64,000 nt of DNA from Halobaculum sp. MBLA0147. GTDB lineage: Archaea > Halobacteriota > Halobacteria > Halobacteriales > Haloferacaceae. Every line of letters starts with the position of its first letter. Positions within the stretch are counted from its first letter, which is position 1. This document shows, piece after piece, positions 30,939-64,000 of the stretch. The notes beneath the pieces are model-generated. The model searched no databases and was not told the origin of the DNA. It saw only the letters and a program-made list of their open reading frames with translations. Both the position numbers and the translations under genes were made by a program. The stretch is from the NCBI RefSeq assembly GCF_041361345.1, contig NZ_JBGKAD010000002.1, forward strand, positions 310,001-374,000. The letters run 5' to 3'.

Positions 30939-31400
30939 TCACCCGTCCGACTCGTCGACGACGGTCTCGGCATCCGACTCTCCGCGTTCGGTCCACCCGC
31001 CTGCGTCGACGATCGTGAACAGCTTCTGCCAGTTCTCGTCGTCCTCGCCGGGTGGGAGTTGGTCTCGGAGTTGCTGGAGATCCGACGGCGGGACGAGTTC
31101 TGCCACCAGGTCGACGATCACCTGGGCGTGGTAGGCCGCCTTCGGCGGGTCGACACCCTCGATCTCGGCGACACGGGCGACGTACTCCTGCCAGTCGAAC
31201 CGTTCCCCGTGTTCGTCGACCGCGCCGGTCGGGTACCAACGAACCTCCATCGGGAGCGACGCCGCCAGGTCTGCGGCGTTACCCTCCGGGATCCGTCGCC
31301 CCAGCGTCGTCAACACCGCTCGCGTCGCTCTGACCGACTCCCCGGTTCCCGGGAGTTGGAGCCGGTGTTGGACCGTCCCAGTGAACTCGTCGAAGTCCAT
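30939..31400 (-). CDS. DUF2267 family protein
   Basis: 153 residues from ATG 31400. The sequence MDFDEFTGTVQHRLQL at the start, followed by ATRAVLTTLGRRIPEGNAADLAASLP, is typical of DUF2267, a small all-helical soluble family of unknown role found next to diverse stress genes. The second half carries another helical repeat, VARVAEIEGVDPPKAAYHAQVIVDLVAELVP. The acidic C-terminal tail is short. A TTTATC box lies at 31433-31438 on the minus strand, 33-38 bases before the start, giving a very short leader. Confidence 0.9.
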   Translation of the reverse strand: MDFDEFTGTVQHRLQLPGTGESVRATRAVLTTLGRRIPEGNAADLAASLPMEVRWYPTGAVDEHGERFDWQEYVARVAEIEGVDPPKAAYHAQVIVDLVAELVPPSDLQQLRDQLPPGEDDENWQKLFTIVDAGGWTERGESDAETVVDESDG

Positions 31401-31432
31401 GCTGATCGTCTCCCGATTCGAGACGCGGCTCG

Positions 31433-31438
31433 ATAAAG
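31433..31438 (-). promoter_or_regulatory. TATA box of the DUF2267 gene
   Basis: TTTATC read on the minus strand, 33 bases before the ATG at 31400. The spacing predicts transcription beginning within about ten bases of the start codon. Confidence 0.55.
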
Positions 31439-31660
31439 CCACACGCGCGTCGCAGCCGCTGCGACGACGGTGTCGGGACTCGACCCGACCGAGGCGAGCA
31501 CTCCACCGGCAGGTGACAACTCGGCGGAGACGGGGATGTACGGCCCGCCGGGAGCGGGGTGTACGCCCCGTACAGGAGCCCGCACCCGAACCGGCGAGCC
31601 GCCGCTAGAGACGGTGTACGGCCGTCAACCGGTCGAAAACGACCCGAACGGCCGTACGGG

Positions 31661-31667
31661 TATATCC
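31661..31667 (+). promoter_or_regulatory. TATA box upstream of the small ORF and CPBP gene
   Basis: GTATATCC stands in otherwise GC-rich sequence. It lies about 30 bases before the ATG at 31695 and 145 before the CPBP start at 31811. That spacing favours transcription starting at the small reading frame. Confidence 0.5.
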
Positions 31668-31694
31668 GACGCCCTACCCAGTGTGTCACTACCG

Positions 31695-31814
31695 ATGTCG
31701 ACGACGTTCGATCCACGAGCCGGTCCGGGACAGACGCCTTGGCGACGGCAGCAGACTACACACGAGACCGACACGCGCCCGCTCACTCGCCCCGCTCGGG
31801 GGTGGTCACAGTGA
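31695..31814 (+). CDS. Possible 39-residue leader ORF overlapping the CPBP start
   Basis: ATG 31695 opens a 39-residue frame rich in Arg, Thr and Pro (starting MSTTFDPRAG). Its TGA overlaps the GTG of the CPBP gene in the GTGA arrangement seen in coupled genes, and its ATG is placed properly for the TATA box at 31661. No family is recognised and the composition is basic, unlike the acidic neighbours, so it could be chance. If real it would couple translation of the protease. Confidence 0.35.
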   Translation: MSTTFDPRAGPGQTPWRRQQTTHETDTRPLTRPARGWSQ

Positions 31815-32572
31815 CGGCACTCCCACGACGACTCGACCGACTCCCCGACGTGCCGACCGAGACCCGCGCGTGGACCGCACTCGCGGCGTTCGGACTCGCC
31901 ACGGGCGGCTTCGTCGCCGGGGTGGTCGGTATCCTGTTCACCCGCCCGACGGCTGCCGCGCTCGGACTCGTCGGGACGGAGGCGTTCGAGTACGCCTCCG
32001 GCACCCTCATCCAGGTCGGGTTCGCGGGATTCGCGGTCGCGTACCTGCTCACTCGCAGCGACCGCGAGCGGTTCGTCCGTGTCCGACGGCCCTCCGTCGA
32101 GGGCGTCGCGTGGCTCCTGCTCGGGATGCCGTTGACGATCTACCTCGGCCTCGGGGCCGGTGAACTGCTCACGACGGTGCTCGGCCCCGCCGCACACCAC
32201 GGTGCCGGTGGCGGCGAGTTGGCGTTGGTCGCGAACCTCCACCTCCTCCCGGTCGCGATCGGGTGGCAACTGCTGTTCGCCGCGCCGGCCGAGGAGCTGG
32301 TGTACCGTGGGATCGTCCACGGCCGTCTCCGCGCGGCGTTCGACACCGTCGGCGTCGTCCTGCTCGGAGCACTCGCCTTCGGGTTCATGCACTTCCTCGT
32401 CGGGCTGCTCACGCCGGGCTCCGTGAGCGCACTCCGGTGGGGACTGTCGACGGTCGTTCCTGGCCTCGTCTGGGGACTCGCCTACGAACGCACCGACAAC
32501 CTGGTCGTCCCGGCGGCGCTCCACTTCGCCTCGTGGACCGTCCCGTTCGAAACGATTCTCCCGTTCGTCTGA
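31811..32572 (+). CDS. CPBP family intramembrane protease
   Basis: 253 residues from GTG 31811 (GTG 31802 is an alternative). Seven or so helices. EELVYRG near residue 160 and FGFMH near 195 are the first two catalytic motifs; the third region reads LHFASWT, where the usual Asn is replaced by Ser, so activity could be altered. A decayed second copy of the last 120 bases lies at 34207-34333, on the far side of the ATPase gene. The substrate is unknown. Confidence 0.82.
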   Translation: MTALPRRLDRLPDVPTETRAWTALAAFGLATGGFVAGVVGILFTRPTAAALGLVGTEAFEYASGTLIQVGFAGFAVAYLLTRSDRERFVRVRRPSVEGVAWLLLGMPLTIYLGLGAGELLTTVLGPAAHHGAGGGELALVANLHLLPVAIGWQLLFAAPAEELVYRGIVHGRLRAAFDTVGVVLLGALAFGFMHFLVGLLTPGSVSALRWGLSTVVPGLVWGLAYERTDNLVVPAALHFASWTVPFETILPFV

Positions 32573-32673
32573 GACGACAGTCTCTGTACAGGGTTGACCG
32601 AGCCGCTCCCGGCGTCTCCCGTCGCGGACCGTGTGGGGGTACGTCTCGGACCCGCGTCCGTGATGATCGCAGG

Positions 32674-32705
32674 GCGGAGGAGGGCATCAGAGCGGAGGAA
32701 GGCAT
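32674..32705 (+). repeat. Two 18-bp direct repeats before the ATPase gene
   Basis: GCGGAGGAGGGCATCAGA is followed at once by GCGGAGGAAGGCAT. The pair lies just upstream of the ATPase promoter palindrome. Confidence 0.6.
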
Positions 32706-32710
32706 AAGTC

Positions 32711-32730
32711 ATTATCACGATAATCATTAT
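32711..32730 (+). promoter_or_regulatory. Palindromic promoter of the ATPase gene
   Basis: ATTATCACGATAAT (32711-32724) is a perfect inverted repeat with six-base arms and a two-base centre. It is AT-rich and begins 27 bases before ATG 32738, where the TATA box of a leaderless transcript would be. A protein bound here would block the promoter. Confidence 0.55.
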
Positions 32731-32737
32731 TCAGAGT

Positions 32738-34120
32738 ATGACCTTTCACGACCGCTCGGCGGAACTCGACGCTCTCGAGACAGCGTTCGAGTCGACGGGG
32801 CACGCCTTCTACGTGGTGTACGGACGACGCCGTGTCGGAAAGACGGCACTGTTGAAGGAGTTCTGTACCGACCGCCCACACATCTACTTTCTCGCAGCAC
32901 AAGAGTCCGAGTTTCGGCAACGCGAGAAGTTCGTCGAGCGGGTCGCGACACACTTCGACGACCGCGTCCCGCGGATCGACGGGTGGGACGAGGCACTCGA
33001 GTACCTCGGCGACCGGCTCGCCGACGAACGACTGATCGTCGCCGTCGACGAGTTCCCGTACCTCGTCGACGAGAACGACTCGCTCCCGTCGTACCTCCAG
33101 TCGTTCGTCGACGAATTACTCGTGGATACAGACTCGATGCTGGTGTTGTGTGGCTCCAGTGTGAGCACGATGGAGTCCGAGGTTCTCGGCCACGAGAGTC
33201 CGCTGTACGGCCGCCGTACGGGACAGATCGACCTCGAACCGTTCGACTTCAGAGCCGCTCGCAGTGTCGTCGGGTACGACATCGAGGACGCGATCAGGTC
33301 GTTCGCCGTCACCGGCGGCACCCCGATGTACCTCACCCTCTTCGACTACGACCGTCCACTCGGAGAGAACGTCAGAGAGAGCGTCCTCTCACCGACGGCG
33401 GTGTTGTACAACGAGTCGGAGTTCCTTCTTCGAACGGAACTACGAAGTCCGGCTCGGTACACGAGTGTTCTCGAGGCGATCGCGACCGGCCACACGACGC
33501 CCAACGAGGTCGCCGGAGCGACTGGTATCGACTCGGGCCCACTGTCGAAGTACCTCCAGACTCTCCGACGCCTCCGACTGGTCGATCGCGAGGTCCCAGT
33601 GACGGCGTCGCCGAAACAGTCCAAACGGTCGCGGTACCACGTCGCGGACGAGTTCCTCCGGTTCTGGTTCCGGTTCGTGGAGCCGAACCGATCCAGTATC
33701 GAGGAAGCGCCCGGTGTCGTCTACGAGCGGTCGATCGAACCGACCCTCCCAGACCACGTCGCACCGACCTTCGAGCGGATCTGTCGAGAAGCCGTGTGGG
33801 AGGCAGTCCGTCGAGACGAACTCCCGCCGTACTCGGAGGTCGGCCGGTGGTGGTACGGGGAAGACGAGATCGACATCGTGGGACTGGCCCCGGACACGGA
33901 CCGGATTCTGTTCGGGGAGTGCAAGTGGACGAGCGATCCCGTCGGCCACACACTCGTGTCCGACCTCCGAGAGACGGCCGAACGCGTCCGTTGGGGACCC
34001 GACACACGCGACGAGACGTTCGCGTTGTTCTCGCGGAGTGGGTTCGTGGACGGTCTCGCGGACGATCTCGGCGACGACTGGTCGCTGTTCGGGCTCGATG
34101 ATCTTCGCGCGTTACTGTAG
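32738..34120 (+). CDS. Archaeal AAA ATPase with winged helix and DUF234 nuclease-like domain
   Basis: 460 residues. Residues 1-210 are the archaeal ATPase domain: Walker A YGRRRVGKTALLKEF near residue 28, Walker B LIVAVDEFPYL near 105, and sensor region LVLCGSSVSTME. A winged helix follows (ATGHTTPNEVAGATGIDSG and KYLQTLRRLRLVDRE, about 245-295). The C-terminal DUF234 part has the PD-(D/E)XK-like signature DEIDIVGL...LFGECKW near residues 375-400, suggesting nuclease activity. These proteins are widespread in archaea, often mobile, and of unsettled function. It is flanked by duplicate CPBP sequence. Short AT-rich promoter with palindrome just before the start. Confidence 0.9.
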   Translation: MTFHDRSAELDALETAFESTGHAFYVVYGRRRVGKTALLKEFCTDRPHIYFLAAQESEFRQREKFVERVATHFDDRVPRIDGWDEALEYLGDRLADERLIVAVDEFPYLVDENDSLPSYLQSFVDELLVDTDSMLVLCGSSVSTMESEVLGHESPLYGRRTGQIDLEPFDFRAARSVVGYDIEDAIRSFAVTGGTPMYLTLFDYDRPLGENVRESVLSPTAVLYNESEFLLRTELRSPARYTSVLEAIATGHTTPNEVAGATGIDSGPLSKYLQTLRRLRLVDREVPVTASPKQSKRSRYHVADEFLRFWFRFVEPNRSSIEEAPGVVYERSIEPTLPDHVAPTFERICREAVWEAVRRDELPPYSEVGRWWYGEDEIDIVGLAPDTDRILFGECKWTSDPVGHTLVSDLRETAERVRWGPDTRDETFALFSRSGFVDGLADDLGDDWSLFGLDDLRALL

Positions 34121-34206
34121 GACTCGGACCCGGCCGTCGCGGTGGTAGCGGCCCCGCCGCACGACCGGCGACGCTCGACGACACCGACGGAGGGGATTCA
34201 TCCACC

Positions 34207-34333
34207 TTGGGGGACTCTCGCCGGCCCGCGTACGAACGCACCGACGACCAGACCGTGCCGACGGTGTCCACTTCGCCTCGTGGACCGTCCCGTTCGAGAC
34301 GATGCCCCCGTCCGTCCGAGACGACAGTCTCGG
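34207..34333 (+). pseudogene. Decayed duplicate of the CPBP gene 3' end
   Basis: Bases 34207-34333 resemble 32468-32585, the last codons and trailer of the CPBP gene at 31811. Shared blocks include TACGAACGCACCGAC, CCACTTCGCCTCGTGGACCG and GAGACGACAGTCTC. The frame is broken by small deletions, the stop is changed (TCTGAGACG became TCCGAGACG), and no start is present. It therefore encodes nothing, but it marks a duplication whose two copies bracket the ATPase gene. Confidence 0.85.
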
Positions 34334-34431
34334 TGACCCGTGGCTGTGAAACCCTCTCGTGACACTCACGGGGACTCCGTCTCACAGTCACGACTGTACC
34401 GGAGCCGTCGACGTGACCGAGTGATCGCGAG

Positions 34432-35271
34432 TCAGATCGACAAGAGGACCAACGCACCCGCCAACACGAGTCCGATCACGGTGAGTGGTCCGTAGAACAA
34501 CCGCCAGTACGCACGGCGGTATCGCTTCGCCAACTCGTCCGGCGAGAGTGTGCTGATCAACAACGGGTCGTCTTCGGGTTCGGTGACACGGGGTGCCTCT
34601 CCGGGCTCGGCGGGCGTGGAGAGCGTCCCGCGAACGGTGAGTCGCTCGCCCGACTCGACGGCGTGTTCGCGGTAGCGGTGGGTCCCGTGGGTGCGACCGA
34701 GGTCGATCAGGTTCGACGTGTCGCTCGGCTCGGTGACGTCGACCTCGTCGCGGAGCCGCTGGAGTCGCTCCGGTGGCGTCTCGTCGGGAGCGACCTCGCG
34801 GTCACAGTCGAACTCGTCGATCTCGACGTGGGCTTCGGCGGTGTCGACCCCGACGAGCGTCTCGTAGCCGGTGAGTCTGTCGCCGAAGTTCGATCCCGAC
34901 GCGGTCGAGGTGACGGAGACGACGACACTCCCGTCGTCCGTCTCGACACGGAGTCGATCACACCGGACGCCGTGTGCGCCCGGCATCCACTGTTTGAGCT
35001 TGCCGCTGTCTCGCCAGCCTTCGATCGACCAGACGACGAACGCGGCCGCCTCATCCGAGACGGGTCCGGTGACACTGGTGTCGGCGCCCACGGGTCCGGT
35101 GACGAAGACTGGCTCGTCTGGCCGACCCGTCGTGGCCGCCAGTTCCGACGTGTCTCTCACGAGACGGTACCGCTCGCGGTACCGCCGACCCTTGTAGAGT
35201 ATCACGGAGGCCGGCAGCAACAGTGCCACGCCGAGAAACACCACGGCGGCAATCGCCTCTCCAGTGATCAC
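34432..35271 (-). CDS. GIDE-like membrane protein
   Basis: GTG 35271 gives 279 residues that start just before an N-terminal helix (AIAAVVFLGVALLLPASVILY); the frame also runs to 35346. A soluble region of about 220 residues follows (with PVFVTGPV, AAFVVWSIEGWRDSG, and EHAVESGERLTVRGTLS), then a C-terminal helix (LTVIGLVLAGALVLLSI). This two-anchor arrangement resembles the prokaryotic proteins related to the GIDE/MUL1 E3-ligase BAM domain; no RING is present. Function unknown; family call is tentative. It is divergent from the TetR gene and shares the operator region. Confidence 0.55.
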   Translation of the reverse strand: MITGEAIAAVVFLGVALLLPASVILYKGRRYRERYRLVRDTSELAATTGRPDEPVFVTGPVGADTSVTGPVSDEAAAFVVWSIEGWRDSGKLKQWMPGAHGVRCDRLRVETDDGSVVVSVTSTASGSNFGDRLTGYETLVGVDTAEAHVEIDEFDCDREVAPDETPPERLQRLRDEVDVTEPSDTSNLIDLGRTHGTHRYREHAVESGERLTVRGTLSTPAEPGEAPRVTEPEDDPLLISTLSPDELAKRYRRAYWRLFYGPLTVIGLVLAGALVLLSI

Positions 35272-35350
35272 GAGATCCGGTAGTCTCCGGCCGAACCTCA
35301 ACTCTACGAAGCCGCAGGCGAGCGCTCGGTGTCCTCGACACCGCAACGGT

Positions 35351-35368
35351 TTAGTTAGTGGTAACTAA
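35351..35368. promoter_or_regulatory. Palindromic operator between GIDE-like and TetR genes
   Basis: TTAGTTA at 35351-35357 and TAACTAA at 35362-35368 form a perfect inverted repeat with a four-base centre, 19 bases upstream of ATG 35387. It is the only AT-rich stretch in the gap and is in the position expected for autorepression by the TetR protein. It is 80 bases from the divergent start at 35271. Confidence 0.7.
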
Positions 35369-35386
35369 GTGATCGACACGAACAGC

Positions 35387-35971
35387 ATGAGCGACCGACG
35401 AACACAGATACTCGAGGCGGCGCGCGAGATTCTCGTCGAAGAGGGCTACGACTCGTTGACGACGAACAGAGTCGCGGAGGCGGTCGGAGTCACCAGTGCG
35501 GGGATTCACTACCACTTCGAGACGAAAGAGGAGTTGCTCGTGGCACTGATCGACAGTCTCCGAGAGCAGTTGTCGGAGACACTGGCGTCACACGACGGAC
35601 CGCCGGAGGAACGGCTCGCCGCCGTCGTCCGGCGTCAGTTCGAGATGGCAGAGGCGGTACGCGAGCTGACCGCCCCACCGGGGATTCAACTCGTCGTCGC
35701 CGGAGCACGGCCCGGACCCGTACAGGCCGCCCTCGTGTCGTACGTCGACACGTACGTCGATCACGTGACCGACGTGATCGAGGACGGTGTGGCGTCTGGG
35801 GTGTTCGAGACCGACGACCCGAGACGGGTGGCGACGTTCTTGGCGTCGGCGACCGACTCCGCGGCGGTTCGAAGCGCGTTGGACCTGTCGCTGGACCCGC
35901 TCGCAGAGAGTCTCACGGCTCACGTCCTCGACGACCTGTACGTGGCGGAGCCCCCGGAGGTGGGTCCGTGA
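35387..35971 (+). CDS. TetR family transcriptional regulator
   Basis: 194 residues from ATG 35387; a GTG at 35369 is in frame but lies at the edge of the operator. The N-terminal helix-turn-helix is canonical: RRTQILEAAREILVEEGYDS, then LTTNRVAEAVGVTSAGIHYHF and ETKEELLVALI. The C-terminal ligand domain is less conserved. Its TGA overlaps the GTG of the following CPBP gene by four bases, so the two proteins are made together. It probably represses its own operon through the palindrome at 35351-35368. Confidence 0.93.
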   Translation: MSDRRTQILEAAREILVEEGYDSLTTNRVAEAVGVTSAGIHYHFETKEELLVALIDSLREQLSETLASHDGPPEERLAAVVRRQFEMAEAVRELTAPPGIQLVVAGARPGPVQAALVSYVDTYVDHVTDVIEDGVASGVFETDDPRRVATFLASATDSAAVRSALDLSLDPLAESLTAHVLDDLYVAEPPEVGP

Positions 35972-36714
35972 CGGACTCGACGGAGGAGGCCGCGAACCGG
36001 AGCCGCACGGGCGGACCGGAGATCGTCCGCGACGGACCCGCTCTGGCGCTCGGACTGGTCGTGGCCCTCACCGGTGGCGTCACCGTCGTACAGTACGGTC
36101 TCGTCGAGTTCACGAGCCCACCCGCTGGGTCCCTGTCGGAGATCGGCTGGCGACTCGCGACGGTGTTCGTCCCGTTCGTCGTCGGTCTCGGTGGGTTCTT
36201 CGCGGTCCGAGGGCGTCCCGTCGAGGTGAGCCCGCCGAGTGTCACCGACCTCGGGTACGTGGCCGGTGGTGTCGTCGTCGCGTACCTCACGTTCGGGGCG
36301 TACGTCGTCGGCACGACGACGTTCGCGCCGGCGTTCGCACACTTCGCGGGTGTCGACGCGGGTGCCGTGACACCGGAGTCCGTGCTGGTCGGTGTGGTCT
36401 CACTCGTCGTGTTCTCCGGAGTGACCGTGGCGGTCGAGGAGTGGTTCTTCCGTGGTACGGTTCAGACGTACCTGCGCTCGGTCGTCGGCAGTGCCGGCGC
36501 CGTCGGCGTCACGGCACTCTGCTTCGCGTGGTTCCACGTCTGGCCGCTCGGGATCGGTACGCCACCGTTCGTCGGCGGTGCCGTCTACTACACTGCGATG
36601 GGGATCGTGTTCGGCTCGGTGTACGAGGCGACGGACAACGTCGTGGTCCCGTTCACCGTCCACGCGCTGTTCAACGCCGGCCCCTACGTCGCCGTCTTGG
36701 TGACTCTCTCGTGA
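35968..36714 (+). CDS. CPBP family intramembrane protease
   Basis: 248 residues from GTG 35968, coupled to the TetR gene. Helices make up most of the protein. EEWFFRG near residue 155, FAWFH near 190 and HALFN near 232 are the three catalytic motifs. Pairing of a CPBP protease with a TetR repressor implies that it is induced by a small molecule or stress signal. The substrate is unknown. Confidence 0.88.
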   Translation: MTDSTEEAANRSRTGGPEIVRDGPALALGLVVALTGGVTVVQYGLVEFTSPPAGSLSEIGWRLATVFVPFVVGLGGFFAVRGRPVEVSPPSVTDLGYVAGGVVVAYLTFGAYVVGTTTFAPAFAHFAGVDAGAVTPESVLVGVVSLVVFSGVTVAVEEWFFRGTVQTYLRSVVGSAGAVGVTALCFAWFHVWPLGIGTPPFVGGAVYYTAMGIVFGSVYEATDNVVVPFTVHALFNAGPYVAVLVTLS

Positions 36715-41917: not shown

Positions 41918-43627
41918 TCAGACCGCGACGGACGGCCCCCCACCGTCGTTGTTCCGGGCCTGCTCGGTGTAGAACGCTAGGTCGAACGCGACGTCGTCGC
42001 CCTGCACCTCGTTGCCGACCTCGAACGGGAGTTCCCACGACATCGCCAGGCAGTGTTGGATGCCGGCGCCCACGAACGGCTCGCGGTCCTCGTCGGTCGC
42101 GGCGTCGTCGAACTCGTCGTACAGCGTCGCGCGGTTGCCGTCCAGGGGGATCCCGTTCCCGGAGGACAGCGCCGCCAGGACGTTGTCGAGCGTGTCCGCG
42201 ACGATCACCTTCTCCGGCACGAACTGCCCCGCGAGCAGCCCGAACACCGCCGGGAGCACCGCGGGATCGTCCACGTCGAAGAAGAAGTTCGGGTCGTTAC
42301 CCGCCGTCCCGGCCTGCCCGGCCATCGCCTGTAGCGTCGCCTCGTCGGCGCTCGCCACGGAGACGGTGTACAGGTCCGTCGCCGGTGCGGGACTCGCCGC
42401 GCGAGCGTCGTCGGCCGCGTCCGTCGGGTCCACCGGGGTGTTGGGCCCCTGCCCCGAGAAGTTCGAGCCGTCCGACAGCGTGACGTTCGCCGCCCGGACG
42501 CCCGGCCGGCCGTTGCTCGCCAACTCGCTCTGTGCGTCCTGGACACCCTCGCCGATGAACGTGCCCGTGGCGATGTTGGACGCGTTCGCGTTCGGGTTCG
42601 GGTTCCCGTCGCCGTCGCCCGGCGTCGAGGGTTCCGGCCCCGTCACCAGGTCCGCCAGCTTCTGTCGGAGCCCCGACAACGCCGCGTCGACGACGCTCAG
42701 GTCCGACGTGAGCGACTGGAGCACGCCCGTCCGCGGATTGGTGTCGTCGCTGCCCTCGCCGTCGAAGTAGGCGACGCCGACCTGGAAGTCCGGGCTCTGT
42801 TGGTCGAGGTACTCGACGAACTGCCGGGCGCCGAGTTCCACGAGGTCGATCCGGGTGGTCTCCTGGTAGGTCGTGCCGTCGATGGTGATCTCGTCGTCGC
42901 TGACGACGCCACCGTACTGGTCGTACAGCATCGAGCCGGAGAAGTCCAGTGTGAGCATGATGTCCACCGGCTCCGCCTCGTCGCGGACGTTGTCACAGTC
43001 CTCGTCGTACCACATCTCCACCTCGATGTTGCTGGCGAGGTCCGGCCCGTCCGTCTCGTCGACGGCCGCCTCGCTGTCCGTGTTCAGCCCCTCGCTCTCG
43101 GAGACGTCGTCGGCCTGCATCCAGATGTAGCCCGGGTTGTCACAGAGGTGGAGACTGAAGGTGACCTCGCCCTCGTCGCCCGGCTTCACATCGCCGAGGT
43201 CGATCAGCGCCTCCTGGGGCGCCCCGGTCGTCGGATCCGTGCCGAAGGTTGCCTCCGACAGCGGCGGGATGTTGTCACAGTCGAGCACGTCGACGTTGCG
43301 GCCGTTGTCGTCCGGCCCCTCTAGCCCGGCGTCGTCCGTGTACCGCCGGACGCTGCCGTCGGGAAGTCTGATCGACTGTTCGCCGTCGTCGTCGTGGTCG
43401 GGGTGTGCGTTGACGAACGCCGTCTGTCCGTTCGCGGTGTACGTCTGTTGCCAGTCGACGAGGAGGTCGAGTTCGCCCGCGACCACCTCGTTGTTCTGGA
43501 ACTCCTCGCGGTCGGAGTAGAACGCGCTCGTGCCGAGCCCGGCGCCAGCGGACGCGAGTCCGACGGCACCGACGCCCGCGAGCACCTTCCGTCTGCTGAG
43601 TCGTCCGATTCCGTTCGTGTCTGTCAT
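41918..43627 (-). CDS. TasA-like surface protein with inserted VWA domain (2)
   Basis: 569 residues from ATG 43627. The signal is RLSRRKVLAGVGAVGLASAG followed by GLGTSAFYSDREEF, a TasA/camelysin-type site for SipW peptidase combined with a twin-arginine pair; after it comes VVAGELDLLVDW. The first half of the TasA-like fold is present (LGDVKPGDEGEVTFSLHLCD, NPGY, WYDEDCDN). Then a von Willebrand A domain begins with the MIDAS motif DFSGSM near residue 230. The TasA-like fold resumes after about residue 480 with LDNVLAALSSGNGIPLDG and MSWELPFEVGNEVQGDD. The inserted VWA should bind a divalent metal and a partner, making it adhesive. Confidence 0.85.
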   Translation of the reverse strand: MTDTNGIGRLSRRKVLAGVGAVGLASAGAGLGTSAFYSDREEFQNNEVVAGELDLLVDWQQTYTANGQTAFVNAHPDHDDDGEQSIRLPDGSVRRYTDDAGLEGPDDNGRNVDVLDCDNIPPLSEATFGTDPTTGAPQEALIDLGDVKPGDEGEVTFSLHLCDNPGYIWMQADDVSESEGLNTDSEAAVDETDGPDLASNIEVEMWYDEDCDNVRDEAEPVDIMLTLDFSGSMLYDQYGGVVSDDEITIDGTTYQETTRIDLVELGARQFVEYLDQQSPDFQVGVAYFDGEGSDDTNPRTGVLQSLTSDLSVVDAALSGLRQKLADLVTGPEPSTPGDGDGNPNPNANASNIATGTFIGEGVQDAQSELASNGRPGVRAANVTLSDGSNFSGQGPNTPVDPTDAADDARAASPAPATDLYTVSVASADEATLQAMAGQAGTAGNDPNFFFDVDDPAVLPAVFGLLAGQFVPEKVIVADTLDNVLAALSSGNGIPLDGNRATLYDEFDDAATDEDREPFVGAGIQHCLAMSWELPFEVGNEVQGDDVAFDLAFYTEQARNNDGGGPSVAV

Positions 43628-43654
43628 GTGATGTGTCGTGTGGTTCGTGATTCG

Positions 43655-43760
43655 TGGTCGCCGCTCGGTTCTGCACCGCAGCCGGTCCTCGGAGCACCGG
43701 TGGTCGTTCGGGTCTGCACCACAGCCGATCCCCGAAGGGTCGGCAGTCGTTCCGACCCCC
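43655..43760. repeat. Imperfect ~44-bp repeats between the two VWA genes
   Basis: Two copies (about 43655-43700 and 43701-43744) share GTGGTCG, TCTGCACCRCAGCCG and a CG-rich tail, with a third partial copy after. They occupy most of the 189-base gap upstream of the second VWA gene and may be duplicated promoter sequence. Confidence 0.5.
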
Positions 43761-43816
43761 ACCGCCGACGGACCTACGTGGCCCGTCGGTTCGTCGGGAT
43801 CCGTGTGACCGGTCGC

Positions 43817-45247
43817 TCAGGCGGACGGCGGCGTCGTGTTGCGCGCCTGGACCGCCGTCGCGCCGATCTCGAAGCTCACGCTGTCGGACTGCGTCTCGTT
43901 GCCCGAGGTGAACGGGAGCTCCCACTCGAAGCCGATACACTGGGTCGTGTTCCCCGGGTACGGCTGGACGCCGGACTCGACGCGAGAGCCGTCGAGGCTG
44001 ATCCGCTCGCTCAACTCCTCGAACACCTCCCGCATCGTGCCCTCGGCGATCTTCTGTTCACCCGCGAGGACGACCTCCGCGATCTCCCCGTAGACCGTGT
44101 CGAGGTCCGCGGGGTCCGGCGCGACGAAGGCGTCGTCCGGGCTGGAGGCGATCTGCGTCTCCAGGAACCCGGCTGCGGCACCGGCGCCCAGCGCGATGGT
44201 GAAGATCCGGATGCCCGCGTTGCGGGCGTCGGCCGCGGCGGCCGCGGCGGAACTCGAACTGTTCGGCGAGCCGTCCGAGAGGACGATCATCACCTTCGAG
44301 GCGCCCGCCGTCGCGTTCGTGCCGCCGAGCAGTTCGGCCTCGGCCGTGTCGATCCCGGCGGTCATGTTCGTGGTGCCACCGGCGGTGTAGTCGTCGATGG
44401 CGTCCTTGACGGCCTGGTAGTCCGTCGTCAACTCCTGGTCGAGACTCGCACCGCTGCTGAACGAGACTGCCGCCGCCTCGTCCGGCGAGGAGAGGTTGTC
44501 GACGAAGTCCGTCGCCGCCGCGATCAGGTCGTTGATCTCCTGGCGCATCGAGCCGGAGGTGTCGCTGACCAGGGCGACTTCGAGTTCGTTGCGCTCGCCC
44601 GTGCCGGTCGGCTCGAAGACGTTGTCACAGTCCTCGTCGTACCAGACACACACCTGGATCTCGTCGGGGAGTTCACTCACGTCGTCCGTGTCGATCCCCT
44701 CCGCGTCGATCTCCGGGTCGTTCTGGCCGTTGTCGCCCTCGCCGGTGATCGCGCCGAACAGTTCGACGTACCCCGGGTTGTCACAGAGGTGGAGACTGAT
44801 CGTCACCTCGCCCGTGTCGCCCGGCTTCACGTCCGAGAGGGTGAAGATCGGCACCTCGTCGCCGTTGACGAGGAACTCGTCGGCCGCGGGGCTACAGAAG
44901 TCGAACGCCTGGTCGCCCTCCGCCTGGACGAGGTCGGCCCAGTCCTGCATGTCCGCCGGCGACGGTGCCTGCCCGAGCAGGTACGTCCCGTCGCCGAGAT
45001 CCTCGGCCTCCGGGTAGCCCATCGCTTTGATCTGTGCCAGCCGTCCCTCGCCGCCGGAGTACGTCGACTTGTAGTCGAGCTTCAGGTCGAGTTCGCCGGC
45101 CGTGACCTGGTTGCCTCGGAACTCCTCCTCGTCGGAGAAGAACGCACTCGTGCCGAGCCCGGCGCCGGCGGACGCGAGTCCGACGGCACCGACGCCCGCG
45201 AGCACCTTCCGTCTGCTGAGTCGCCCCAGCCCGTTCGTGTCTGTCAT
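43817..45247 (-). CDS. TasA-like surface protein with inserted VWA domain (1)
   Basis: 476 residues from ATG 45247. The signal RRKVLAGVGAVGLASAG and GLGTSAFFSDEEEF is the same as in its neighbour; the DNA for it is about 93 percent identical between the two genes, while the rest diverged. After AGELDLKLDY come LSDVKPGDTGEVTISLHLCD, NPGY and VWYDEDCDN. The VWA domain follows with MIDAS SDTSGSM near residue 215 and GGTTNMTAGIDTA, VMIVLSDGSPN. The fold closes with REVFEELSERISLDG and FEWELPFTSGNETQSDS. Likely a secreted, metal-dependent adhesive component of a fibre. Confidence 0.88.
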   Translation of the reverse strand: MTDTNGLGRLSRRKVLAGVGAVGLASAGAGLGTSAFFSDEEEFRGNQVTAGELDLKLDYKSTYSGGEGRLAQIKAMGYPEAEDLGDGTYLLGQAPSPADMQDWADLVQAEGDQAFDFCSPAADEFLVNGDEVPIFTLSDVKPGDTGEVTISLHLCDNPGYVELFGAITGEGDNGQNDPEIDAEGIDTDDVSELPDEIQVCVWYDEDCDNVFEPTGTGERNELEVALVSDTSGSMRQEINDLIAAATDFVDNLSSPDEAAAVSFSSGASLDQELTTDYQAVKDAIDDYTAGGTTNMTAGIDTAEAELLGGTNATAGASKVMIVLSDGSPNSSSSAAAAAADARNAGIRIFTIALGAGAAAGFLETQIASSPDDAFVAPDPADLDTVYGEIAEVVLAGEQKIAEGTMREVFEELSERISLDGSRVESGVQPYPGNTTQCIGFEWELPFTSGNETQSDSVSFEIGATAVQARNTTPPSA

Positions 45248-45389
45248 GTCGTGTGTCGTTGTGTTGTCGCGGCGTGTCTCGACGACGCCGCTGCCGTCGC
45301 CCGCCGGTGTCGCCGGGGTTCCGCCCGGCCGTCGTCGGTCGTCAGTCCACTCGGGTCGCCGCCGAGTCGGTCACCCCGCTGGCGACCAC

Positions 45390-46265
45390 TCAGTTCGCGA
45401 CGGTGTTGTTGAACGGGTCCGTGTTGTTCCGGACCTGCTCCGTCTTGAACACGAGGTCGAACGAGAGACTGTCACCCTGGATCTCGTTGCCCACCTCGTA
45501 CGGGATCTCCAGCAGCAGGTAGAACACGTACGAGTCGCCGTCGACGCCACCGATGGCGAGCGGCATCCCCTGGTCGTCCTTGACGATGTACCCACCGTCG
45601 TTCACGTCCAGAACGGCGTTGGCCTCCCGGGCGGTGGTGTGGTGCTGGTCGGCGTCCACGACGCCGTCCAGGTCGGGGTCGGCGTAGGTGAGTCCGAGCA
45701 GGTCACTCGCGTTGTTGAACACCGGGTCCAGGTTCGTGAGGTCCGTCTTCGTGCCGCCCGTGGAGCCGTCCGTCGGGCCGGCGTAGTCCTGCCACACCGT
45801 CGACAGGAGGAACTCGCCCAGGTCCGCGCTATTGTTCGTGTCGCCCTCGGCCTCTCGTTCGGGCTCGGGGTTCGCACCGCCCGCCTCCGCGAACTCCTCC
45901 GTGCACACTTGCACGTAGCCGGGGTTGTCGAGGACCTCGATCTCACAGCAGACGATCCCCCAGTCGCCTGGCTTGGCGTCGTCGACCACCAGGCCGACGA
46001 CGGCGTCTTGGCCGTCTGCGGTCGTGGACGCGCCCAGCTGGAACGACTCCTGGTCGGCCCAGAAGTCGTTGGCGGCCACGATGCTGGCAGTCACGGACAT
46101 GTCGAGGGTGCCCGCGGTGAGGCTGTTGTTCTCGAGTTCTTCGGTGTCGGAGAAGAACGCGCTCGTACCGAGTCCTGCGCCCGCGGAGGCGAGGCCCACG
46201 GCACCGAGGCCGGCGAGCATCTTCCGCCGCGAGAGGTCGTACAGTCGGGGTTCGTCGTCTGTCAT
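45390..46265 (-). CDS. TasA-like (camelysin-type) fibre protein
   Basis: 291 residues from ATG 46265. The signal YDLSRRKMLAGLGAVGLASAG continues GLGTSAFFSDTEELENN, then LTAGTLDMSV, the classical TasA/CotN arrangement. The mature protein has VDDAKPGDWGIVCCEIEVLD, NPGYVQV and ends LEIPYEVGNEIQGDSLSFDL and FKTEQVRNN. It lacks a VWA domain, so this is the simple form. In Bacillus, TasA forms biofilm fibres after cleavage by SipW; the same is inferred here with the peptidase at 38679. It is the first gene of the locus, divergent from the DUF7344 gene, and there is an inverted repeat upstream. Confidence 0.85.
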   Translation of the reverse strand: MTDDEPRLYDLSRRKMLAGLGAVGLASAGAGLGTSAFFSDTEELENNSLTAGTLDMSVTASIVAANDFWADQESFQLGASTTADGQDAVVGLVVDDAKPGDWGIVCCEIEVLDNPGYVQVCTEEFAEAGGANPEPEREAEGDTNNSADLGEFLLSTVWQDYAGPTDGSTGGTKTDLTNLDPVFNNASDLLGLTYADPDLDGVVDADQHHTTAREANAVLDVNDGGYIVKDDQGMPLAIGGVDGDSYVFYLLLEIPYEVGNEIQGDSLSFDLVFKTEQVRNNTDPFNNTVAN

Positions 46266-46682
46266 GGTCGTACTCCCCGGCGGCCGTCCGTCCGACCGTC
46301 CCGGGATACACGTCCCGTGGCTGGGTACTGGATTAGCTATGATCCGATTCAACCCGGTGCATCCGGCCGATGACGGCTCGTCAGGCTCTCTAACCCCGAT
46401 ATTCGGGGTCTTTCGGCCGTGTGTCGGGGGCTCCGTACCGGTCCCCTGGCGGTCGGTCGGCTACTCCGTACCACCGTTCCGGACGTGGTCAGGGGCTCTG
46501 TACGCCCGCTGGGAGGCCCTGCAGCGTCCGCCTGTCGCTCTGTAGTGTCGCCGAGACCGACCGGAACGGGGTCCGAGCCTCGCCGTCCGCGCGTCGGACC
46601 ACGACTCAGCCGTGCCGTACCACGCGGTGGTGGCTCGCGGTGCCGTCGGGCAGCCACACCCAGTCGATCGGTCTGGGAGTGC
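46266..46682. other. Divergent regulatory region of the fibre locus
   Basis: 417 bases between the TasA-like gene and the DUF7344 gene at 46683. It includes CCCCGATATTCGGGG at 46394-46408, an inverted repeat with six-base arms, and no protein with supporting signals. The promoter elements of both genes should be here, but no strong TATA box is visible. Confidence 0.5.
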
Positions 46683-62915: not shown

Positions 62916-64000
62916 CTCTCCCGTGACCCCCCGGATCGTTCTGTGCTCGACGGTGGCGCTCGGGACCGCTCGTCTGCCCTCTGCGGCTCCCGCGACCGCT
63001 CACCCTCCGCCCACGCCGCGACACGGTCACAGAACGTGTCGAAGGCGCCGGACTCGGCGTGGACGTGTGTGTACGTCCCGAGCGTCCGGTACTCCGTCAG
63101 CCCCTCGCGGCCGTCGGCGATCCCGTCGCCGCGCGTCACTTCGAACGCGAACCGCGCGTCGCTCGCCACGTCGGCCGTCGAGTAATGGAACTCGTGGCCG
63201 CGAACCGTCTCCCCGCTCGCGGCCGTGAGCGTCCGGTCCGTCGCACTGAGTTCGACGTGATCCAGCGCCTGGTACCGGTCACACATCCGCACGTCCGCCG
63301 GGAGCACGCCCGCCATCTCGTGGGTCTCCCCCTCCGCCGTCGTCAACGTCTCTACCAGCGCCATCAGGCCGCCACACTCGCCGAGAACGGGGAGTCTGTC
63401 GGCGGCCCGCTCCGCCAACGTCGCCAGCGCCGGACTCTCGGCGAGCGCCGCGGCGTGGAGTTCGGGGTAGCCACCCGGGAGGTAGACGCCGTCACACGGC
63501 GGGAGCTCGTCGCCCGCGGCGGGGGAGAACGGCACCACCGTCGCACGCGCTCGGAGTCGGTCGAGCGTCGAGGGGTACCGGAAACAGAACGCGGCGTCGT
63601 CCGCGACCGCGACACGGGGCTCGTCGGTGTCGATGTTCGAGGCCCGTCCCTCGCGTCCCTCGACTCCCGAGTCGCCGTCTGCGGGTCCACCCCGACCCGA
63701 CTGCGCCGGTCGCGGTGGCTCGCGAGCGACCTCGACCAGCCGCTCGGCGTTGACGTGCTCGGCCGCCTCCTCGACGGCCGCCTCGGAGACGGTCGTCTCC
63801 TCGCCCATCACGAGTCCGAGGTGCCGATCCGGCACGGAGAGATCTTCGTCTGGGGGGACCCGACCGACGTACGCCAACTCCTCCGGCAGCGCCTCGCGAA
63901 TCCCCTCGGCGTGGCGCCCGCCGTGGGCACGCTGTGCGAGGACGCCGGCCACCTCTACGTCGTACCCCGCCTCGTCGGCGTACGCTGCGAACCCGAGCGC
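62912..64000 (-). CDS. cbiA: Cobyrinic acid a,c-diamide synthase, 5' end cut by window edge
   Basis: The frame is open at base 64000 (residues [19 protein letters not shown] read in from the edge), so the N-terminal P-loop part lies outside; 362 residues are present. Visible are GLVMGEE, a linker rich in Arg/Gly, and the glutamine amidotransferase with [12 protein letters not shown], the nucleophile in [12 protein letters not shown], and HEFHYS. It amidates the a and c acetate side chains of cobyrinic acid. The basic Ser/Arg tail is odd for a haloarchaeon. Coupled to cobQ. Confidence 0.93.

What the first reader, a model, noticed from the sequence alone, without database searches (positions are those of the whole stretch)
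32468..34333. ATPase gene bracketed by a duplicated CPBP gene end
Bases 34207-34333 are a decayed copy of 32468-32585. The 1.4-kb ATPase gene with its promoter and small repeats lies between them. This is the footprint of insertion with target duplication, or of recombination that moved the ATPase-DUF234 gene in. Such genes are often mobile in archaea, but the mechanism is not known.
Basis: partly seen in the sequence, partly recalled or inferred. Interest (0 to 1): 0.7.

Follow-up and report, generated by a model that had tools for sequence, protein, structure and literature searches.

The report
Mobile ATPase-nuclease gene with duplicated flank
A salt-loving archaeon has picked up a one-gene candidate antivirus system (an ATPase fused to a nuclease), and a ~110-base copy of the neighbouring gene's end was left on its far side; relatives of this gene in other species show the same kind of scar, and in one of them the second copy comes largely from foreign DNA, which hints at how such genes move without a transposase.

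Summary
Window 32479-32587 (end of a CPBP gene) recurs at 34227-34334, 86% identical, with sharp ends, bracketing one ATPase-DUF234 gene (32738-34120). The gene is horizontally spread: 73-81% identical across scattered haloarchaeal genera and megaplasmids, not found in the three congeners held, lower in G+C than its neighbours, conserved only from 42 bases before the ATG to the stop. It matches PADLOC's candidate defence family PDC-S27; the AlphaFold model shows a STAND/Orc-like ATPase and a PD-(D/E)XK-like end. Bracketing repeats are enriched around this family: 11 of 124 loci versus 0.9% of control positions. Two relatives have true empty sites in congeners. In Halolamina the right copy begins with 146 bp of a foreign homologue (71% to Halolamina, 83% to another genus), then switches to host sequence: recombination through a homologous flank, not a transposon-type target duplication. 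For the window no empty site exists in the genomes held, and its right copy looks neutrally decayed (1-nt deletion, lost stop, 5/5/4 changes by codon position), so true duplication plus decay remains a live rival. Closest precedent: 'insertion with long target duplication' of restriction-modification genes.

The parts
31811..32572 (+). CPBP / Rce1-like membrane protease gene, intact; its 3' end is the left copy of the repeat
   Evidence: Pfam PF02517 E 5e-14; homologues 40-60% in other genera; GTG start at 31811 is an estimate
32479..32587 (+). left copy of the direct repeat (core; a looser extension begins at 32468)
32571..32584 (.). GAGACgacaGTCTC small inverted repeat at the 3' end of the left copy; may be the CPBP terminator or a breakage point
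   Evidence: function inferred
32588..32695 (.). left spacer, no similarity to anything compared
   Evidence: flank conservation at background 25%
32696..32737 (+). conserved promoter/operator CGnAAnnnATAAGTCATTATCGnAGTAATCATTATnnAGAGT, directly before the ATG
   Evidence: conserved in 44 non-identical homologous loci, sharp drop to 25-29% upstream of -42; 0 expected by chance in the window
32738..34120 (+). ATPase-DUF234 gene, 460 aa: STAND/Orc-like ATPase, winged-helix region, C-terminal PD-(D/E)XK-like domain; PDC-S27 family
34121..34206 (.). right spacer, no similarity to the CPBP gene upstream of the repeat
34227..34334 (+). right copy of the direct repeat (looser extension from 34207): 15 differences, 1-nt deletion, stop lost
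34318..34331 (.). second copy of GAGACgacaGTCTC at the 3' end of the right copy
34432..35346 (-). GIDE-like membrane gene downstream of the insertion
   Evidence: Pfam PF12483 E 6e-6

Best explanation
A horizontally transferred single-gene candidate defence unit (own promoter + STAND-type ATPase fused to a PD-(D/E)XK-like domain, PDC-S27 family) was integrated just behind the CPBP gene by the cell's DNA recombination machinery, not by a transposase. The incoming piece probably carried, next to the ATPase, a homologue of the CPBP gene end. Recombination in that homology at one junction, with a non-homologous join (or a single crossover of a circle) at the other, left two copies of the CPBP end around the new gene. 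The left copy completes the working CPBP gene; the right copy is free to decay. Shown: the repeat, acquisition by horizontal transfer, recurrence around relatives, empty sites and foreign sequence in a relative. Inferred: that the window's own event took the same route.
For: Repeat confirmed with sharp ends. ATPase 73-81% identical in scattered genera and on haloarchaeal megaplasmids, only 43-45% paralogues in the three held congeners, while its neighbours match at most 60% and 39% elsewhere in the family. Conservation starts 42 bp before the ATG and stops at the stop codon. ATPase G+C 0.633 vs CPBP 0.706. Bracketing repeats: 11/124 family loci vs 33/3613 control positions; tight brackets 5/124 vs 1/3613 (Fisher with a reduced control count 7e-5 and 0.007). 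Empty sites with one copy in congeners for L101 (Halohasta) and L252 (Halolamina). L252 left copy 95-96% to host relatives; first 146 bp of right copy 71% to host relatives, 83% to another genus, differences 10/6/27 by codon position, then host-like. L101 mosaic 40/49 informative sites, permutation 0/20000.
Against: No empty site for the window locus in 170 family genomes or a 392-genome sample of the order, so its route is inferred by analogy. Window differences look neutral (5/5/4 by codon position, deletion, lost stop), as expected of an identical copy that decayed. Most homologous loci (42 of 44 close ones) have no bracket. L275 has a different topology: both sides of its right copy continue in the relative and the left copy is an extra patch. 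The Halohasta mosaic could also arise by decay of the non-functional halves.
Confidence: 0.5

Rival explanations
1. [quoted passage not shown] the two copies were identical at birth and the right one decayed.
For: In the window, differences are spread over codon positions as under neutrality (5/5/4), with a 1-nt deletion and lost stop in the right copy. Same appearance as the ~100-bp target duplications described for restriction-modification genes (PMC3874152). In L252 about 58 bp at the end of both copies is near-identical host-like sequence, so a real overlap of the two junctions does occur there.
Against: In L252 most of the right copy is foreign. In L101 differences have a third-position excess, 19/36, p about 0.012, hand-counted. 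Three window differences in the right copy match the nearest homologue's bases, though this is within chance.
Confidence: 0.33
2. Old tandem pair of CPBP genes; the ATPase later replaced most of the second gene, leaving only its 3' end.
For: CPBP genes are abundant in this genome (5 matches) and another lies at 35968-36714.
Against: The two copies share 15 nt past the stop and then both end sharply; old paralogues in this family are only 30-60% identical in protein. No tandem of this CPBP type was seen beside the homologues checked.
Confidence: 0.12
3. The bracket is unrelated to the ATPase: a coincidental local duplication in a rearranging region.
For: A minority of homologous loci have brackets; the island-like surroundings of some loci contain IS-type sequence (by eye).
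Against: Brackets are ~10 times (loose) to ~100 times (tight) more frequent around this gene family than at control positions on the same replicons; 26 of the 33 control hits come from the window, where a tandem gene array lies at 42-46 kb.
Confidence: 0.05

Closest known systems
Insertion with long target duplication of restriction-modification genes (Nobusato et al. 2000; Furuta et al. 2010; as summarised in PMC3874152 and PMC1643837)
   Same: A defence-type gene without transposase lies between direct repeats of ~100 bp of flanking sequence, while a relative has one copy (relatives of the window gene).
   Different: Archaeal, single-gene ATPase-nuclease instead of an R-M pair; in Halolamina the second copy is largely foreign, so it is not a simple duplication. 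The original papers were not available here; comparison rests on the summaries.
PDC-S27 (PADLOC-DB candidate defence family; PMC12988326)
   Same: ATPase fused to a PD-(D/E)XK-superfamily domain; single gene; widespread in Archaea by transfer; HMM match E 3.6e-49.
   Different: The paper does not describe flanking duplications in the passages read. Antiviral activity of the window gene is untested, and its immediate neighbours are not defence genes.
Homology-facilitated illegitimate recombination (PMC3240628)
   Same: [quoted passage not shown] matches the Halolamina junctions.
   Different: Described for naturally competent bacteria and E. coli conjugation; here inferred from archaeal genome comparison, donor molecule unknown.
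Archaeal STAND-like ATPases 2qen (P. abyssi) and 2fna (SSO1545)
   Same: Best fold matches of the model, E 6e-14 and 6e-11.
   Different: Those chains are ~350 residues and TM-scores are moderate (0.47-0.48 by query); the C-terminal DUF234/PD-(D/E)XK-like part is extra.

Membership tests
PDC-S27 candidate defence family | Profile match to the family models | tested here: met
   PDLC04984 E 3.6e-49, PDLC04985 E 2e-34; relatives L101, L252, L253, L255, L275 also match best
PDC-S27 candidate defence family | ATPase domain with Walker motifs | tested here: met
   PF01637; GRRRVGKT-type Walker A in all 44 close homologues; D104-E105 invariant
PDC-S27 candidate defence family | PD-(D/E)XK-superfamily domain | tested here: met
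   Invariant D379 and E394-C-K396 in 34 sequences; helix-strand-strand-strand-helix-strand order at residues 325-432 in a pLDDT 95 model. By motif and topology only; the fold search was won by the ATPase half
PDC-S27 candidate defence family | Antiviral activity | not testable with these tools
   Needs a plaque assay; [quoted passage not shown]
Insertion with long target duplication | Direct repeats of ~100 bp of flanking sequence around the gene | tested here: met
   109-bp core repeat
Insertion with long target duplication | Empty site with one copy in a relative | tested here: inconclusive
   None found for the window; found for relatives L101 and L252
Insertion with long target duplication | The two copies are duplicates of one host sequence | tested here: inconclusive
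   Window: compatible with decay of an identical copy. Not met for relative L252, where 146 bp is foreign
Transposon / insertion sequence | Transposase gene and terminal inverted repeats with short target duplication | tested here: not met
   Only the ATPase gene lies inside; no inverted repeat brackets the unit
Integrase-driven element | Integrase gene next to an att site | tested here: not met
   No integrase between the repeats; no Rfam match in 31000-36000
Homology-facilitated illegitimate recombination | One homologous and one non-homologous junction with donor sequence known | tested here: inconclusive
   L252 right junction lies in conserved sequence, left junction without detected homology; donor unknown; not resolvable in the window

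The most novel reading that the evidence does not exclude
PDC-S27 genes promote their own spread: the ATPase-nuclease protein makes or stabilises breaks so that its gene is copied into broken loci by recombination, leaving flank duplications as a signature, a homing-like behaviour of a defence gene.
Probability: 0.06. Interest if true: 0.85.

Novelty: new variant of a known kind. Interest (0 to 1): 0.5.

Why it matters
Single-gene defence candidates spread widely among archaea although they carry no transposase or integrase. If flank duplications are a recurrent scar of their arrival, and if the second copy is often foreign, then homologous flanks, rather than an enzyme of their own, would be the vehicle. 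It would also mean that some 'long target duplications' described for restriction-modification genes deserve a check for foreign sequence in one copy. Both are testable by comparing empty and filled sites.

Tried and rejected
First CPBP coordinates were out of frame. Empty-site search for the window by CPBP DNA and right-flank DNA in the family and CPBP protein in the order: only distant CPBP genes (best 60%, G081) without the same neighbours. CPBP, GIDE or TetR beside other close ATPase loci: none. Empty sites for L268, L275, L253, L255: not found. L275 topology differs. First orientation of loci was wrong for minus-strand hits and was redone. Viral contigs: no relative; phages: only distant ones, at most 34%. 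Rfam: nothing. Direction of change in the window copies by comparison with the nearest CPBP homologue: 9 sites favour the left copy, 3 the right, not decisive (counted by eye).

Full report
Observation. Bases 32479-32587 and 34227-34334 are direct repeats, 86.2% identical over 109 bp with one 1-nt gap; a looser extension reaches 32468 and 34207. The score is far above shuffles (141 against at most 27 in 300), and outside the repeat both flanks fall to the shuffle level. The left copy is the 3' end of an intact CPBP gene plus 15 nt after its stop; the right copy has lost one base and the stop. In the own genome there are only these two good copies. One gene lies between them, 32738-34120, ATPase_2 + DUF234.

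What the gene is. Its best annotated match is PADLOC's PDC-S27 (E 3.6e-49). A 2026 survey of archaeal immunity describes S27 as an ATPase fused to a PD-(D/E)XK-superfamily domain, a candidate defence gene without validation, abundant in Archaea and spread by transfer (PMC12988326). In an alignment of 34 relatives the Walker A glycine and lysine, D104-E105, D379 and E394-C395-K396 are invariant. An AlphaFold2 model (mean pLDDT 94.9) has the strand order expected of a PD-(D/E)XK domain at residues 325-432, and the ATPase part matches archaeal ATPases 2qen and 2fna, Orc/Cdc6 proteins and NLR resistosomes. The nuclease assignment rests on motif, topology and the paper; the fold search did not single it out.

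It is an acquired unit. Homologues with 73-81% identity sit in scattered haloarchaeal genera and on at least a dozen megaplasmids, while the three other held genomes of the genus have only 43-45% paralogues. Its neighbours are far less conserved: CPBP at most 60% and GIDE at most 39% within the family. Among 44 non-identical homologous loci, DNA conservation begins 42 bp upstream of the ATG and ends at the stop codon; beyond both, identity is the 25% background. The conserved 42 bp hold CGnAAnnnATAAGTCATTATCGnAGTAATCATTATnnAGAGT, probably promoter plus operator. G+C is 0.633 against 0.706 in CPBP. Several genomes carry broken remnants. No transposase, integrase or terminal inverted repeat belongs to the unit.

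Does the bracket recur? I compared upstream and downstream 2-kb flanks of 44 close and 80 more distant (35-49%) relatives. Repeats of at least 60 bp bracket 11 of 124 (2 close, 9 distant), against 33 of 3613 sliding control positions in neighbouring 20-kb regions and the window; tight brackets (left copy within 250 bp, right copy within 450 bp) occur in 5 of 124 against 1 of 3613. Control positions overlap, so I also used a reduced control of about 330 gene-length segments: p = 7e-5 and 0.007. Most of the control hits (26 of 33) come from the window, where a tandem array of related genes lies at 42-46 kb. The window locus is itself one of the five tight cases and is why the test was made; without it the counts are 10 and 4 of 123. 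Most loci show no bracket, so it is not an obligatory footprint.

Empty sites in relatives. Halohasta litorea (L101, ATPase 75% identical) has a 351-bp, 85% bracket. A congener (G023) has one copy with both outer flanks contiguous. The left copy resembles the empty site in its 5' part, the right copy in its 3' part: 40 of 49 informative sites fit one switch, 0 of 20000 permutations. Each conserved half belongs to an intact gene, so selective decay of the other half is a possible alternative; a third-position excess of differences (19 of 36, hand-counted, p about 0.012) leans towards a foreign homologue.

Halolamina salifodinae (L252, ATPase 41% identical) is clearer. Its bracket is 204 bp, 77% identical, at the 5' end of an RNase J-like gene. 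Congeners G032 and G005 have one copy with both flanks contiguous. The left copy is 95-96% identical to them over its first 146 bp. The right copy, which begins the intact gene, is 71% identical to them there and 83% to a genome of another genus (G028); the differences between left and right copies fall 10/6/27 by codon position, the mark of a working foreign gene; the last 58 bp are 93% identical between the copies and host-like. The segment just before it also matches other genera at 79-81%. So the right junction is a crossover between a foreign and the host gene, and the left junction lies about 60 bp further along without detected homology. This resembles homology-facilitated illegitimate recombination, known from bacteria (PMC3240628).

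Back to the window. No empty site was found in the family (170 genomes) or a 392-genome sample of the order. The 15 differences fall 5/5/4 by codon position plus one outside, and the longest identical run, 31 bp in the middle, has p about 0.06. Nearest-homologue comparison is undecided. The window therefore does not discriminate between a duplicated host copy that decayed and a foreign homologue that decayed. I prefer recombination through a homologous flank because the one relative that can be resolved shows it, at about even odds.

Comparison with the known. Restriction-modification genes of Helicobacter were reported to insert with target duplications of the order of 100 bp (PMC3874152, PMC1643837); the original papers were not held. 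The window and its relatives look like this class of event in archaea with a different defence-type cargo, with the added observation that one copy can be foreign. I file it as a new variant of a known kind. That the gene drives its own movement is not excluded but nothing here requires it.

Limits. The family and order searches were samples of available species. The bracket test used thresholds chosen after seeing the window and the first relatives; a fresh data set should repeat it.

Noticed in passing
window 41918-46352 (minus strand): Three neighbouring genes with similar N-terminal signal regions (LSRRK(V/M)LAG(V/L)GAVGLASAGAGLGTSAF), two with vWA-like stretches: a tandem array that produces most of the control repeats.
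   Followed up: partly
window 32571-32584 and 34318-34331: GAGACgacaGTCTC inverted repeat closes both copies of the direct repeat; a similar element occurs once more at 63786.
   Followed up: no
L199-L278, upstream of the ATPase starts: Different branches of the DUF234 ATPase family have different, strikingly repeated AT-rich operator-like promoters (for example GAAATCnnGATTTCnGAAATC arrays), suggesting tight, perhaps autogenous, control.
   Followed up: no
L217, L221, L253, L275 flanks: IS200/IS605 (TnpB)-like ends seem to lie beside several bracketing repeats; judged by eye only.
   Followed up: no
L275 3950-4010 region downstream of the ATPase: Long run of a 6-base TTCCTG-type tandem repeat just after the right copy.
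   Followed up: no
L186 (G073:C2 148000-154000), L185, L187, L188: Broken copies of the close ATPase (stops or missing ends) in several genomes, pointing to frequent gain and loss.
   Followed up: partly
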